Source: Limosilactobacillus antri DSM 16041 (GTDB lineage Bacteria > Bacillota > Bacilli > Lactobacillales > Lactobacillaceae). Taken from it: DNA of 64,000 nt. The notes under the pieces are model-generated. The model saw only the letters and a list, made by a program, of their open reading frames with translations. It made no database searches and was not told the DNA's origin. Position numbers and translations under genes: made by a program. The stretch is taken from contig NZ_GG700732.1 of the NCBI RefSeq assembly GCF_000160835.1, forward strand, positions 16,183 through 80,182. Reading direction: 5' to 3'. Of this stretch, positions 1 through 21,904 are shown piece after piece (position 1 is the first letter of the stretch; every line of letters starts with the position of its first letter).

Positions 1-734
1 TGATAAAGCGCTAATTCCGTCACACCTTTTGCTTTTAACAGAGCAAAAAGATCATCGAAATGGAAACGGAAATGTCCAAGGTAATGCCCATCTGATCCAA
101 CACTAAACAAGGTATCACCACGTGAAAGATATAAATCGATGACATATTCATATAACGCTAAATTGTCATACAAGTAAGCGCTCTTAGCATTTAATTCGAA
201 TGCCAATTTATTTTTGATTACTTGATCTAGAATCGGTAAAAACTGCGCTTCATATTGTTTAAATTCAGCAACGGATAGACCAAATACCCGAAAACCATAG
301 TCAAAATGAGCAAAGACATCTGCTTCTATAACAACTAGTGCTTCTGAAAGTTGTTCAAAATACTGAGGAATCACAATAGCAGGATCCATATCTTTGACTT
401 CGTCATCTAAATAATCAAATTGACCATTATGATGCACACTGAGTAATTTTAAATCGTAATCTTTATCGGCTAAATAGTCGATGATCCGATCCTTTTCAGA
501 AGCGATGTAACCGATTTCGATGCCTTTTAAAACACGATTGCCAAAACGCTTATTTAAGTTATCGATTGTTTGACTGTACATTTCATAATCGGGGATATCA
601 TCGACTTTAGTAACAGGATTGGCTAAGTCAAAATGTTCAGTTGTCACGACGTAACCATCGTAGTTTGTTAAATAGTCCTCATTTCTTGGGAGTTTTGAGA
701 CTACTATATGCGTTTTTTGTTGATTTACCAACAT
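1..734 (-). CDS. PHP-domain hydrolase, histidinol-phosphatase-like (partial)
   Basis: The frame runs from an ATG at 734-732 off the left edge, giving at least 244 residues; the family is only slightly longer, so little is missing. Visible PHP-type blocks are the TTEHFD stretch near residue 30, SVHHNG, AHFDYG and GSDGHYLGH, whose His and Asp residues bind metals in this phosphoesterase superfamily. The N-terminus lacks the usual H-x-H metal pair and reads NQQKTHIVV instead, so activity is uncertain. An AGAGG lies 12-13 nt before the start. The gene is much richer in A and T than everything to its right, which suggests different ancestry. The substrate is unknown; it could be histidinol phosphate or another phosphoester. 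Confidence 0.75.
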   Translation of the reverse strand, partial: MLVNQQKTHIVVSKLPRNEDYLTNYDGYVVTTEHFDLANPVTKVDDIPDYEMYSQTIDNLNKRFGNRVLKGIEIGYIASEKDRIIDYLADKDYDLKLLSVHHNGQFDYLDDEVKDMDPAIVIPQYFEQLSEALVVIEADVFAHFDYGFRVFGLSVAEFKQYEAQFLPILDQVIKNKLAFELNAKSAYLYDNLALYEYVIDLYLSRGDTLFSVGSDGHYLGHFRFHFDDLFALLKAKGVTELALY

Positions 735-789
735 GTTTAGACATTTTCCTCTAGGAAAAAATTAACTAGCATCACGGGTATACTAGTAA

Positions 790-1812: not shown

Positions 1813-2229
1813 AATCAGTTCCTCCTTTGAAAATGCTTACTGCTATCATAACAATTCAGATTGATTAATTCTAGTTAGTATTCGGTCACCAGCACTAATA
1901 AAGGCTGCGGGTAAGAATCATCCTGAGATTTGATATACAAAACCCGGGTCAGCAGTTATATAATGAAATAGTCAAATCTACTATAATTGGAGGAGTATAA
2001 ATTTGAAAGAACATAAGAAGATGTATAAGGCGGGGAAACTCTGGCTGACGGCCACCCTGGCTACCGTGACGGGTGCAATGCTGTTGACGAGCCCAGCCTT
2101 CGCAGATGAAATAAACTCAACGCAGAGTATGCCACAGGCAACGACAAGCACCAGCAGCACGACTACCGTAGCCGGTAACGCCGCTCTAGCACCTGCCGGA
2201 ACGGTAAGCAACCAGGGACAAACCAACCT

Positions 2230-2238
2230 GGGGGGGGG
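2230..2238 (+). repeat. Nine-G homopolymer at frameshift site
   Basis: The run of nine G lies about 75 codons into the surface-protein gene. Removing one G, or adding two, joins the signal-peptide frame to the long downstream frame. Such tracts are classic sites of slipped-strand mispairing. It is also a position prone to sequencing error, so the lesion needs read-level confirmation. Confidence 0.9.
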
Positions 2239-3680
2239 CAGAACCGGCGCCTAGTCAACCTAGTAAGCAGGGCCAGCCAAGTACTTTTGTCGCTCAGCAA
2301 AATGCCCCAGTTAAATTAGCGACGAGCACACTGGAATGGGAGTACCGCCTTAGTGCAGATTCAGGGGTGATTCAAGATTATACTGGTCATTTTTCGCTGC
2401 AGACTTTTGATGCGTCGCAGATTCACGTTGATTTAGGATGGGGTAATCAGTCTTGTGTGTTGGACCGGGACTGTTATTCATTTTTTGATATGATGACTGG
2501 CCAGGAGTTACCAATCGTAAATCCGATGAAGGCTGGTCCTTATTACATTAACCTTAATGCAAGGGGGCTTGCACGGCTAAATGCTCGCGGTGACGGCATT
2601 TACAAATTTAACAACACGAGTTATATTGCTGTGTACCTGTCGGATTTGGACCAGGCATATATCAAGACTAAATTTATCGATGGTGCCGGTAGCAAGCAGT
2701 ACGCTAAGAGCGACCAACCGCTTCCGGTAGATGACCAAAATGTTCAGGTGACGGTCAGTGATTATTCTAATCAGCTGGGAACCTATGTGCCAAGACCAGG
2801 TGACCTTGAATATCTCGACAAACACGGGAAGCTGGTTGACCCCCAAGTGGTGGGAACCATCGGTGATTCGTTCGGACAGGCATATTATATTTACCTGAGC
2901 CCCCAGGGGATGCGTAATTTGCAGGCAGCACTCCCGTATGTTAAGGGCTTTGCGTCACCCTCAACGATTGATTTAGCTAAAATTACAGTCATTGGACCAG
3001 CAAAACCGGTGACCCTGGGACGGATTGTGATTAGCGATGACGAGAATCATTGGTCGAGCTTTGTGGGGGAAGACACCACGAATAACCTGGCGCACTTTAA
3101 GGTCCAACGGATGGATGAAAACCGCAATTGGTCGACGGTGGAGCTCCAACCGGGAGACTTAGTGTTTTATGACTTGCAGGGCAACCGCGTTACGCCAGAC
3201 CACGTCAGCTGGTACAATGTAAACGTCAGCCCGCAGTTGCTTAACCGTTTAAACTCGACGATGCCTTATGCAAATTTTTACAGCCTCCAACGCTCATCAG
3301 GCTGCCTGTACTACGTCATGGGACGGGCGACCGCACAAGTGGTGGGGCCGCAGCGGATTAGCTGGCGTGATGCCCGCCACCTGGAAAAAATGGGCTATCA
3401 GGTAAACGTGACCTACAATGGGCGGACCATTATTTCTGACTACCATCCGATTAAATGGGACCTCGAATTAGTTGACGACGCTGGTAACGTCGTCACTGAC
3501 CCACATACCAGCGGTAACTACCGGGTGCGGCTCAGTAAGCAGGGGTACCTTAGTGTGGGATTGAGTAAGAAGGACTTTGCAACGCATTACAAGGTGACCG
3601 CGGACATTCCGCAAGCCGTCCAACTCTACCAGCCATACGACCCGACCCCGGCGGACTACCAGCAAAACTATGGCAACTTG

Positions 3681-4011
3681 GATAGTTATTCACTGCGGCC
3701 GGTTTCAGACAGCCAGGCGGCCCTTCACGTTGCCGGCTGGCATGCCAGCGGGGCATCGGCGGTCCTTTCGAATGGCTACTTGATTGTCTTTGATAACACC
3801 TTGGGAAATGAAATCAAGCGGGTGGCAATCAAGCCGGTCAACCGGCCAGACGTCCGGGCGGCCTACCAAAACGTTTATGGCAGCCTGGAATCTGGTTTCG
3901 ACCAGGATATTCTCATCCCGCTCGCTAACGCTGGCGATGACCTGACCGTGATTGCCCGCTACTCTGATGATCCCGTCGGTGGTGAAGGCCAGCGGATTGA
4001 TCACTGGTTTG
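3681..4011 (+). repeat. Protein repeat copy 1 (GWHA/RPDV module)
   Basis: This is the first of four modules in the surface protein. It reads V-A-GWHA, then a YLIVFD strand, EIKRV, RPDVRAAY, SGFD, IARYSDDP and ends at IDHWF. Period to the next copy is about 365 bases. Confidence 0.8.
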
Positions 4012-4047
4012 CGCGGATCAACGCCGACCACGGTAACCACGCCTGGA

Positions 4048-4366
4048 TTGACAGTGTGCAGTACGTCGACGGTCACTTCCGGGTTAACGGCTGGCACGCG
4101 ACAAACCAGGCCCTGGGCAAGGGCCACCACACCCTGATTGTCTGGGATGCCAGTCAGGGCAAGGAGTTAACCCGGATCACTGAGCTTCCGGCGGTTGCCC
4201 GGCCCGACCTGGTCAAGGCCTTCCCGACAATTCTGGGGGCGGACCACGCCGGCTTTAGTGTTGATATTCCTCTCCTGACGGCGATGACTACGGATAAGAT
4301 TCAGTTCATTAGCCGCTACTCCAGCATGGCGGACGCCAACCGGGACTACATCGACTACTGGTTTGC
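4048..4366 (+). repeat. Protein repeat copy 2 (GWHA/RPDV module)
   Basis: The second copy has the same order of motifs: VNGWHA, HTLIVWD, ELTRI, RPDLVKAFP, AGFSVD, ISRYSS and IDYWF. It is clearly homologous to copies 1 and 3 at protein level. Confidence 0.8.
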
Positions 4367-4407
4367 CCCACAGCAGTTATTCAGCGACTTAGCTAACCGG
4401 GCGAACC

Positions 4408-4725
4408 TCGATAGTTGGGGTGTCCAAGGGCGGACGCTGCACGCGGCTGGCTGGCACGCTACCAGCCAGTCGGCTGGGCGGCCGTACCACTACCTAATCC
4501 TCTTCGACCAGACGACCCAGCGAGAAATCAAGCGGGTCCGGGTGACCGCCAACAGTGCCCGGCCTGACGTTGCCGGGGCCTTTCCGGGAGTCTACAATGC
4601 TGGTGATGCGGGCTTTGATGTTAGCTTCAAGTTAAATTCAAGGACCAATGGTCACCGTTTGACGATCCTGAGCCGGTGGACCAGTGATCCGGCCGGCAAT
4701 GGAAACGCAATCGACTACTGGTTCG
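4408..4725 (+). repeat. Protein repeat copy 3 (GWHA/RPDV module)
   Basis: The third copy has AAGWHA, YLILFD, EIKRVRV, RPDVAGAFP, AGFDVS, LSRWTSDP and IDYWFG. It is the closest match to copy 1. Confidence 0.8.
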
Positions 4726-4811
4726 GCAGCATGCTGGCGCCGGAACTCTCACTGGTACCGACGTCAGGGAAGAATTCACCGGCTGACCACGATGTTGAAA
4801 AGGCCTTCCAC

Positions 4812-5234
4812 ATTGATAACGTTAGCGTTGTTAGGACAAAACAGGATCCTCAAATTCAAATTAGCGGGTGGGCGGCAAGCAACTACTGCGCAGACTGGAA
4901 CCGACAAATGACGGGGGATCCACAAGTTGATTCCGAGATTCTACAGCAAGCTCGAACCGTGGAAGTAATCTTTGGTGGCTTTGAGGGTAATCAGGGCTGG
5001 GCGGCTGGTTACCAGTACGGTAATGGAAACGGTGACGTTAATGGAATGAGTCAAATTATACGTCCAGACGTGGCAGCGGCGTACCCAGAAATCTGGGGAA
5101 GTCGGTACAGTGGCTTTACGTTTATTGTTGACTCTAGCATAGAGCCGAGCGAGGACTGCCGATTTACCATCAGCTTTTATGCTCCCGATGGAAAACAACA
5201 CGATGCCATGGTAAGCCCGGTTTACCACTTTGAT
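4812..5234 (+). repeat. Divergent protein repeat copy 4 with insertion
   Basis: ISGWAAS, VEVIFGG, RPDVAAAYP, SGFTF and a final YHFD keep the module order, but the copy is longer and carries a Gly/Asn-rich insertion around 5010-5050 and two extra Cys. It closes the protein. Confidence 0.6.
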
Positions 5235-5297
5235 GTCGAAAATCAAACCTACACGGTGGAAGCAGCGGAGTAGTTGACATCCATAAAAATAAGTGAG

Positions 5298-5341
5298 GTC
5301 AGCTGTGCTATTTGCAATCAAATAGCACAGCTGGCTTTTTT
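5298..5341 (+). terminator. Rho-independent terminator after surface protein
   Basis: A near-perfect 17-bp stem (5298-5314 with 5319-5335, one G-T pair) with a CAAT loop is followed by six T. It ends the surface-protein transcript before rlmA. Confidence 0.92.
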
Positions 5342-21201: not shown

Positions 21202-21630
21202 ATGGCAGCAAACTTTTTGAAGAGCTTATTTGGTGACGATGACCTGGACCAGCAGGAGGAATACTACGAGAATTCCCAACCAGCGGGTCGCCAGGGGAAT
21301 AATAAGGTTGTGTCCTTTAGCGAGGGCCAGGCTAGTCGTGCGGGCCAGATGACCAGTAAGATTTCTCTGTACGAACCACGGATGTATGCTGACGTGAAGC
21401 AAATTGCCTCCCAGCTGCTCGCTGACCGGGCGATTGTCGTCAACTTTACCCAGATGGATCCCAAAGCCGCGGCTCGGATGGTCGATTTCCTAAACGGGAC
21501 GGTTTTTGCAATCAAGGGTGAAATGAAACGAATCGGTAAGGAAATCTTTTTATGTGCGCCGAACAACTTTGAGGTTTCCGGCAACCTCTCAAGCAATTTA
21601 AAGACCGAGAGCGACCACTTTAACGACTAA
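21202..21630 (+). CDS. sepF: Cell division protein SepF
   Basis: The 142-residue protein has an N-terminal membrane-binding helix ([14 protein letters not shown]), an acidic linker, and a C-terminal domain with [20 protein letters not shown] and the [10 protein letters not shown] segment of the SepF/YlmF fold. It polymerises into rings that align FtsZ filaments and can replace FtsA as membrane anchor. Start ATG follows AGGAGGG. It lies before ylmG, the standard order. Confidence 0.95.
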
Positions 21631-21640
21631 GGAGAATGCG

Positions 21641-21904
21641 ATGCTGTTTGTACTCGGGGTGGTCAACACCCTTATCAATGCCTATATTTGGGTAATCGTA
21701 ATTTGGTGCCTCTTATCATGGTTCCCGAATGCGCGGGGGACGCGCCTGGGCGAAATCATTAACCGCCTGGTGGAACCGTATATGCGCTGGTTTGACTTTA
21801 TCCCACCCCTGGGTGGGATCAGTTTCTCGCCAGTTGTTGCGATTTTCGTGCTGTACCTTGTACAAAACGGAATTACTGCTCTGGGGCACCTGTTTGGTGT
21901 GTAG
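21641..21904 (+). CDS. YggT family membrane protein YlmG
   Basis: The 87-residue protein has two hydrophobic helices and the YggT signature around residues 20-50 (ARGTRLGEIINRLVEPYMRWF, PPLGGISFSPVVA). The gene sits 10 nt after sepF and 9 nt before ylmH, as in most Firmicutes. The family is linked to division and to membrane organisation, but its biochemical role is not established. Confidence 0.9.
   Translation: MLFVLGVVNTLINAYIWVIVIWCLLSWFPNARGTRLGEIINRLVEPYMRWFDFIPPLGGISFSPVVAIFVLYLVQNGITALGHLFGV

What the first reader, a model, noticed from the sequence alone, without database searches (positions are those of the whole stretch)
2230..2238. G9 tract as a possible phase switch for a large surface protein
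Nine G break the frame after the signal peptide of a KxYKxGKxW protein. Eight G would restore about 1089 codons, and the downstream 1000 codons are intact, which is unlikely for an old pseudogene. Long homopolymers near the start of adhesin genes are known slip sites in other bacteria; it would be notable in lactobacilli.
Basis: partly seen in the sequence, partly recalled or inferred. Interest (0 to 1): 0.7.

Follow-up and report, generated by a model that had tools for sequence, protein, structure and literature searches.

The report
Slippery G-tract switching lactobacillus surface proteins
A run of nine Gs puts the signal peptide of a large lactobacillus surface protein out of frame with the rest of its gene, and because similar G-runs sit at the start of surface genes in related lactobacilli, two of which are known in both in-frame and out-of-frame versions, it is probably a random ON/OFF switch rather than a mistake.

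Summary
G9 at 2230-2238 separates an 83-codon TTG ORF with a KxYKxGKxW signal peptide from an otherwise intact ~1,010-codon frame with MBG domains and repeats, so the gene as sequenced is OFF. The window comes from a close relative of Limosilactobacillus oris. L. oris DSM 4864 lacks the gene at this site; a more distant relative has an intact orthologue without a tract. One other L. oris protein record begins at the same internal codon, suggesting it is also OFF; no ON copy of this gene was found. Genus-wide, 50 Limosilactobacillus genomes hold 61 G>=9 tracts; 4 lie within 300 nt after a KxYKxGKxW motif on the coding strand (0.04 expected under a uniform model), and 5 more surface-gene loci carry one. 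Two out-of-frame genes have near-identical in-frame counterparts: an L. caviae mucin-binding protein (1 difference in 892 aa) and L. reuteri GtfW (7 in 1,452 aa). Out-of-frame alleles deviate in both directions, as slippage predicts. The GtfW case may explain why L. reuteri DSM 20016 GtfW was reported without a signal sequence. Best explanation: slipped-strand phase variation, a known mechanism for which my searches found no report in lactobacilli. Switching itself was not shown.

The parts
1989..1995 (+). GGAGGAG, likely ribosome-binding site
   Evidence: read directly; 7 bases before TTG 2003
2003..2254 (+). upstream ORF (TTG start, 83 codons, stop TAG 2252-2254): OFF-state product, a signal peptide plus a short tail
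2006..2092 (+). KxYKxGKxW signal peptide
   Evidence: PF19258 E 2.5e-10, TIGR03715 E 8.4e-10
2230..2238 (+). G9 tract, proposed slip site; the two frames part here
2239..5273 (+). main coding part in the other frame, no stop before 5271-5273 (frame open from 2208)
2367..2369 (+). GTG, start of the downstream ORF as listed; the public protein P0001 begins at the equivalent codon
2679..2933 (+). best-scoring MBG stretch (PF17883; 3 stretches pass in all)
3729..4740 (+). region of about 118-120 codon repeats (GWHA motif at 3729, 4083 and 4443; right-hand limit approximate)
   Evidence: P0001 has an insertion of about 120 aa in this region
5295..5338 (+). terminator-like hairpin (20 pairs) followed by T run; gene likely monocistronic
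   Evidence: 4 terminator-like sites found in the region, 3.5 expected in shuffles; this is the longest stem

Best explanation
The G9 is a slipped-strand phase-variation site. During replication the G run gains or loses a base, joining or separating the KxYKxGKxW signal peptide and the MBG/repeat surface protein. In frame (ON) the cell exports a roughly 1,089-residue surface protein; with nine G (OFF, as sequenced) translation ends after 83 codons and nothing large is exported. Shown: the frame break, the otherwise intact gene, the recurrence of such tracts at the start of surface genes in Limosilactobacillus, and near-identical in-frame and out-of-frame alleles of two other tract genes. Inferred: reversible switching in this strain, and an adhesin or cell-wall role.
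For: (1) About 1,010 codons without a stop on one side and an intact signal and likely ribosome-binding site on the other. (2) In 50 Limosilactobacillus genomes 61 G>=9 tracts exist (regions; recounted). Four lie 65-183 nt after a KxYKxGKxW motif with G on the coding strand; with 408 such signals the uniform expectation is 0.04 within 300 nt (P about 1e-7), 0.08 within 600 nt (P about 2e-6) and 0.14 within 1,000 nt (P about 1e-5). Five further surface-gene loci have G>=9 tracts: three with other signal peptides, a family member in L. oris DSM 4864, and an LPXTG gene apparently split between two contigs at its G10. (3) Among the listed part of the KxYKxGKxW hits, five very short open frames do not lie at a contig end; four of the five break at a G7-G9 tract. 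(4) In-frame alleles exist: P0185 (L. caviae, 1 difference in 892 aa, with PF19258) against out-of-frame L094, and P0064 (L. reuteri subsp. suis, 7 differences in 1,452 aa) against out-of-frame L152. (5) Out-of-frame alleles deviate in both directions: L148 opposite to the window, L094 and L152. (6) Two DNA-methyltransferase genes, a classic phase-variable class, also carry frame-breaking G10/G11. (7) Of 69 compared frames from relative G029, 68 match the window in a single frame, so the assembly is not generally error-ridden.
Against: No ON allele of this gene was found: of 63 homologues (only the 7,978 candidates sharing most words were scored), the near-identical ones are P0002, a 915-aa internal-start record that is apparently the window's own, and P0001, which also begins at the internal start. 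No reads or isolates were available to show mixed lengths. The orthologue in G029 has no tract and L. oris DSM 4864 lacks the gene at this site. Two other tract genes carry a second lesion (L093, L051), so some tract genes may be decaying. About 39 of the 61 tracts are in no long reading frame by the criteria, and only 10 of 61 belong to the nine surface-gene loci. The 300-nt distance was chosen after seeing the data, the uniform model ignores glycine-rich signal peptides, and L093/L131 and L152/L153 are homologous pairs, so the cases are not all independent. The in-frame/out-of-frame pairs could partly reflect sequencing differences.
Confidence: 0.66

Rival explanations
1. Assembly or base-calling error: the true tract is a constant in-frame length and the gene is always ON.
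For: Long G runs are a known weak point of sequencing (recalled). The window's source and read technology are not given. The L. caviae pair could be two assemblies of one strain (contigs of 38,799 and 38,687 bases).
Against: Frames elsewhere in the window are intact (68 of 69 compared). P0001, a different strain by sequence, also lacks the signal. Random errors would not concentrate behind KxYKxGKxW signals.
Confidence: 0.14
2. Fixed loss of function: the tract expanded once and the gene is now a young pseudogene.
For: P0001 also starts internally. Some tract genes have a second lesion. The gene is absent at this site in L. oris DSM 4864.
Against: About 1,010 codons have no further stop or shift, although P0001 has already diverged by about 2-5% over its first 600 residues. 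Against the G029 orthologue the best-conserved 200 codons have dN 0.05 and dS 0.51, but that mostly reflects shared history. The tract itself is slip-prone (established for such runs elsewhere; not measured here).
Confidence: 0.14
3. Programmed transcriptional slippage or ribosomal frameshifting at the G run makes some full-length protein from the OFF sequence without any DNA change.
For: Homopolymers of 8 or more are often transcriptional-slippage sites (PMC3711429, passage read).
Against: The same source names runs of A or T as the characteristic motifs. Out-of-frame alleles in different genes deviate in both directions, and in-frame alleles exist in DNA-derived proteins, which a programmed shift does not require.
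Confidence: 0.06

Closest known systems
Bifidobacterium breve UCC2003 sortase-pilus G-tract switch (PMC9187656; abstract and passages read)
   Same: Intragenic G-tract in the first gene of surface (pilus) clusters of a Gram-positive gut commensal; frames joined by tract length; a range of tract lengths in the population shown there
   Different: Pilin operons in Actinobacteria; slippage measured by maximum-depth sequencing. Here single large KxYKxGKxW proteins in lactobacilli, inferred from sequence only
Poly-G/C contingency loci of Campylobacter and Neisseria (PMC6321876, PMC4965091, PMC3786947; search listing and start of abstract only)
   Same: Homopolymer in the reading frame, surface genes, several loci per genome
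   Different: Gram-negative and long established (C. jejuni NCTC11168 has 29 poly-G/C loci of 7 or more by the PMC4965091 abstract); here few G>=9 tracts per genome
Gardnerella phase-variable colony variants (PMC11287997; search listing and start of abstract only)
   Same: Phase variation, with homopolymeric tracts and slipped-strand mispairing among the paper's terms, in a mucosal organism of the Bifidobacterium family (family placement recalled)
   Different: Different genes; colony phenotype observed there
KxYKxGKxW surface proteins (TIGR03715/PF19258) with MBG domains
   Same: Signal peptide and MBG both over the curated cut-offs
   Different: Signal and body are in different frames here

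Membership tests
Slipped-strand phase-variable (contingency) locus | Homopolymer of about 7 or more inside or just before the coding region | tested here: met
   G9 at 2230-2238, 227 nt into the ORF
Slipped-strand phase-variable (contingency) locus | Tract is the only visible lesion; the rest of the gene is intact | tested here: met
   about 1,010 codons open, signal and likely RBS intact
Slipped-strand phase-variable (contingency) locus | In-frame and out-of-frame alleles of the same gene in different isolates | tested here: inconclusive
   this gene: only OFF-like records seen; both states seen for two other tract genes of the genus
Slipped-strand phase-variable (contingency) locus | Tracts enriched in surface or DNA-modification genes of the genus | tested here: met
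   4 of 61 within 300 nt after a KxYKxGKxW motif, 0.04 expected under a uniform model; two methyltransferase genes, enrichment of that class not computed
Slipped-strand phase-variable (contingency) locus | Reversible high-frequency switching in a clonal population | not testable with these tools
   needs reads or cultures
KxYKxGKxW signal-peptide protein | TIGR03715/PF19258 over cut-off at the N-terminus | tested here: met
   38.0 bits against cut-off 18; 40.5 bits against cut-off 23.6
KxYKxGKxW signal-peptide protein | Export through accessory Sec (SecA2/SecY2), known for some members (recalled) | not tested
   not searched
LPXTG wall-anchored protein | C-terminal LPXTG anchor | tested here: not met
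   no PF00746 hit at E up to 1; C-terminus reads ...DVENQTYTVEAAE

The most novel reading that the evidence does not exclude
Limosilactobacillus has a genus-wide phasome: poly-G tracts placed in or just after signal peptides stochastically switch export of adhesins, mucin-binding proteins and the glucan-making enzyme GtfW, with poly-G-switched DNA methyltransferases alongside. The sequenced L. reuteri DSM 20016 would simply be a phase-OFF clone for GtfW, which would account for its missing signal sequence and its unexpected failure to make isomalto/malto-polysaccharides.
Probability: 0.5. Interest if true: 0.76.

Novelty: new member of a known kind. Interest (0 to 1): 0.6.

Why it matters
Limosilactobacillus strains are widely used and studied as probiotics and gut colonisers, usually as if a strain had one fixed surface. 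A slip switch at the signal peptide would make adhesion, aggregation and exopolysaccharide traits vary between stocks of one strain, would make annotated 'pseudogenes' functional in part of the population, and is directly testable by amplicon sequencing. It offers a simple candidate explanation for a reported oddity of a well-studied enzyme (GtfW).

Tried and rejected
The window gene's DNA has no match in the plasmid collection. The genome-contig scan returned one locus, a paralogue in L. oris DSM 4864, not the orthologue. The promoter scan gave 5 sites against 3.2 expected, so no promoter is claimed. dN/dS against the G029 orthologue is saturated over most of the gene and cannot separate an OFF-switched gene from a young pseudogene. 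One of five short-frame KxYKxGKxW hits, L151, has no G-tract and another cause, so it was not counted as support. One of five matches to the signal-peptide tract pattern, L159, lies in an unrelated reading frame. In a family-wide sample of 396 genomes the G8+ form of that pattern matched only two genomes, both Limosilactobacillus already seen, while the reversed control pattern matched three other genomes; the narrow pattern therefore says little beyond the genus. A -1 ribosomal frameshift was rejected for the window because the shift needed is +1 (frames). Paper searches for phase variation by G-tracts in lactobacilli found none in their listings (open-licence PMC papers only, lists capped); other papers may exist outside that library.

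Full report
WHAT IS THERE. Nine G lie at 2230-2238. Upstream, GGAGGAG and a TTG at 2003 open an ORF whose product starts with KEHKKMYKAGKLW after the start residue, a KxYKxGKxW signal peptide over the curated cut-offs of PF19258 and TIGR03715. It stops at TAG 2252-2254 after 83 codons. The next frame is open from 2208 to 5273 and encodes MBG domains and about 118-120-codon repeats with a GWHA motif, followed by a 20-pair terminator-like hairpin at 5295-5338. No LPXTG anchor is found. Read as it stands, the large protein has no signal peptide: the gene is OFF.

CHANCE AND ASSEMBLY QUALITY. Apart from this tract the window's G/C runs of 6 or more number ten of 6 and two of 7; a first-order Markov model of the same sequence would give about 40, 11, 3.6 and 1.2 runs of 6, 7, 8 and 9. 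Real sequence avoids such runs, so the G9 stands out locally, but a single 9-mer is not improbable from composition. For assembly quality I compared 82 stop-to-stop frames (150 aa or more, real genes and others alike) of the syntenic region of relative G029 with the window: 12 had no match, 70 matched; of these 1 was set aside for identity under 55%, 68 matched in a single frame and 1 in two frames (minus strand, 21280-21826; not followed up). The window is not generally frameshifted.

WHOSE GENE. Flanking DNA is 87-89% identical to L. oris DSM 4864 (G001; named by the record title, linked), where the matches to the pgl-like and rlmA-like flanks lie 126 bases apart without this gene between them. 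G029 (81-84% in the flanks) has an in-frame ORF of 1,396 aa at the same place, without a G-tract. Among 63 homologous proteins (7,978 candidates scored) P0001, an NCBI L. oris MAG protein, is 95-98.5% identical over its first 600 residues, has an insertion of about 120 aa in the repeat region, and begins at the codon equivalent to the window's GTG 2367. Its lack of a signal peptide suggests that it too is out of frame upstream, but its DNA was not in hand. P0002 (915 aa, 100%) starts at a later internal ATG and appears to be the window's own record. No ON allele of this gene was seen.

GENUS-WIDE TEST. I listed every G>=9 tract in 50 Limosilactobacillus genomes (27 of 50 have any). Overlapping rows merge to 61 tracts in 60 regions (32 of length 9, 21 of 10, 7 of 11, 1 of 14), all fetched and read in all frames on both strands. 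Four follow a KxYKxGKxW motif by 65-183 nt, with G on the coding strand: L091 (in frame), L094 and L131 (out of frame, with 892 and 1,747 codons open after the tract) and L093 (out of frame, plus a second shift shortly after); L093 and L131 are homologous. With 408 TIGR03715 matches in the same genomes (sum) and 91.3 Mb, 0.04 are expected within 300 nt on the coding strand (P about 1e-7), 0.08 within 600 nt and 0.14 within 1,000 nt (P about 1e-5). The distance was chosen after seeing the data and the model is uniform; it does not correct for glycine-rich signal peptides, although encoded glycine cannot explain out-of-frame tracts. Five further surface-gene loci carry a tract: L096 (YSIRK-like signal, a recalled name; out of frame, LPQTG end), L143 and L109 (YSIRK-like, open through the tract, although the L109 signal looks odd), a further L. 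oris DSM 4864 family member (L051, out of frame and also shifted inside the signal), and an LPXTG gene of G039 that appears split between contigs C56 and C34 at a G10. These nine loci account for 10 of the 61 tracts. About 39 lie in no long frame by the criteria. The rest include a DNA methylase gene (L098, G11, N6_N4_Mtase; part of its upstream sequence reads N) and an MmeI-type restriction-modification gene (L125, G10), both out of frame, and a ROK-family gene (L120).

SHORTER TRACTS. Among the listed TIGR03715 hits (the list was truncated) eight have open frames of at most 53 aa. Three lie at contig ends by their coordinates; of the other five, four break at a G-tract in the signal-peptide region: L094 (G9), L148 (G7), L152 (G8) and its orthologue L153 (G8). 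The fifth, L151, has another cause. A pattern for a G7+ run followed by a signal-peptidase-like site matched five places in 50 genomes, four of them these genes and one unrelated, with no match for the reversed control. In 396 genomes sampled from the family, the G8+ form matched only G008 and G034, both from this genus, against three matches of the reversed control.

ALLELE PAIRS. For two out-of-frame genes the protein database holds in-frame counterparts. P0185, 'mucin-binding protein [L. caviae]', differs from the 892-aa downstream part of L094 at one residue and carries the signal peptide. P0064, a GH70 protein of L. reuteri subsp. suis, carries the signal peptide seen in L152 and differs from it at 7 of 1,452 residues after the tract. 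So the same genes exist in and out of frame. L148, with 1,548 codons open after its tract, is displaced in the opposite direction to L094, L152 and the window. Both directions are what slippage produces and what a programmed frameshift would not.

A LINK TO PUBLISHED BIOLOGY. L152 is a gtfW locus: a published gtfW primer matches it, and its 1,999,618-base contig has the size I recall for L. reuteri DSM 20016. The paper that characterised GtfW from DSM 20016 states that no N-terminal signal sequence is predicted (PMC3536977, passages read). A 2025 screen reports that DSM 20016 unexpectedly formed no isomalto/malto-polysaccharides, while citing earlier work with low yields (PMC11803698, passages read). 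Both fit an OFF allele in the sequenced and tested stocks; the connection is my inference, and the authors suggest fermentation conditions instead.

MECHANISM. Most likely the G-run slips during replication, switching signal-peptide continuity and hence export of the large protein. The nearest demonstrated case that I found in a Gram-positive commensal is the pilus G-tract switch of Bifidobacterium breve (PMC9187656; abstract and passages read). What this study adds is recurrence at one functional spot, in or just after the signal peptide, in a genus where my searches found no report. What it lacks is population data: no reads, no isolates of this lineage and no protein detection. The switch reading for the window therefore rests on anatomy plus genus-level analogy.

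VERDICT.

Noticed in passing
L152 (G034:C1:1397000-1403000) and L153 (G050:C95:500-6471): The gtfW-type GH70 gene is out of frame at a G8 in the signal peptide in two species representatives, while P0064 is an in-frame L. reuteri subsp. suis allele. L153 shows a further frame interruption after residue 925 of its main ORF.
   Followed up: partly
L098 around 4001 (G009:C9) and L125 around 4001 (G037:C3): A DNA methylase gene with G11 and an MmeI-type restriction-modification gene with G10, both out of frame at the tract: possible phase-variable DNA modification in Limosilactobacillus.
   Followed up: partly
L156 end and L157 start (G039 contigs C56 and C34): Two contigs end and begin in a G10 that may link a signal peptide to an LPXTG surface protein; the assembly break itself may reflect mixed tract lengths.
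   Followed up: partly
L111 (G023:C60, tract 1531-1540) and L154 (G042:C1:2068136-2068145): G10 tracts about 190-230 nt upstream of KxYKxGKxW motifs, possibly promoter-spacing switches.
   Followed up: no
window 300-780 (ORF 3-734, minus strand): DNA 98-99% identical to places in several other Limosilactobacillus genomes (G029, G035, G038, G049), far above the flanks: probably a recently moved insertion element.
   Followed up: no
window 3729-4740: P0001 has an insertion of about 120 aa relative to the window in the repeat region, so this gene probably also varies in repeat number.
   Followed up: no
G004, G028, G033 (L089, L112, L122 around 4001): A tract with similar flanks in three genomes has 9, 10 and 10 G, outside long frames: a possible intergenic length polymorphism.
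   Followed up: no
window 21280-21826: The one G029 frame that matches the window in two frames (minus strand; possibly an antisense, non-gene frame).
   Followed up: no
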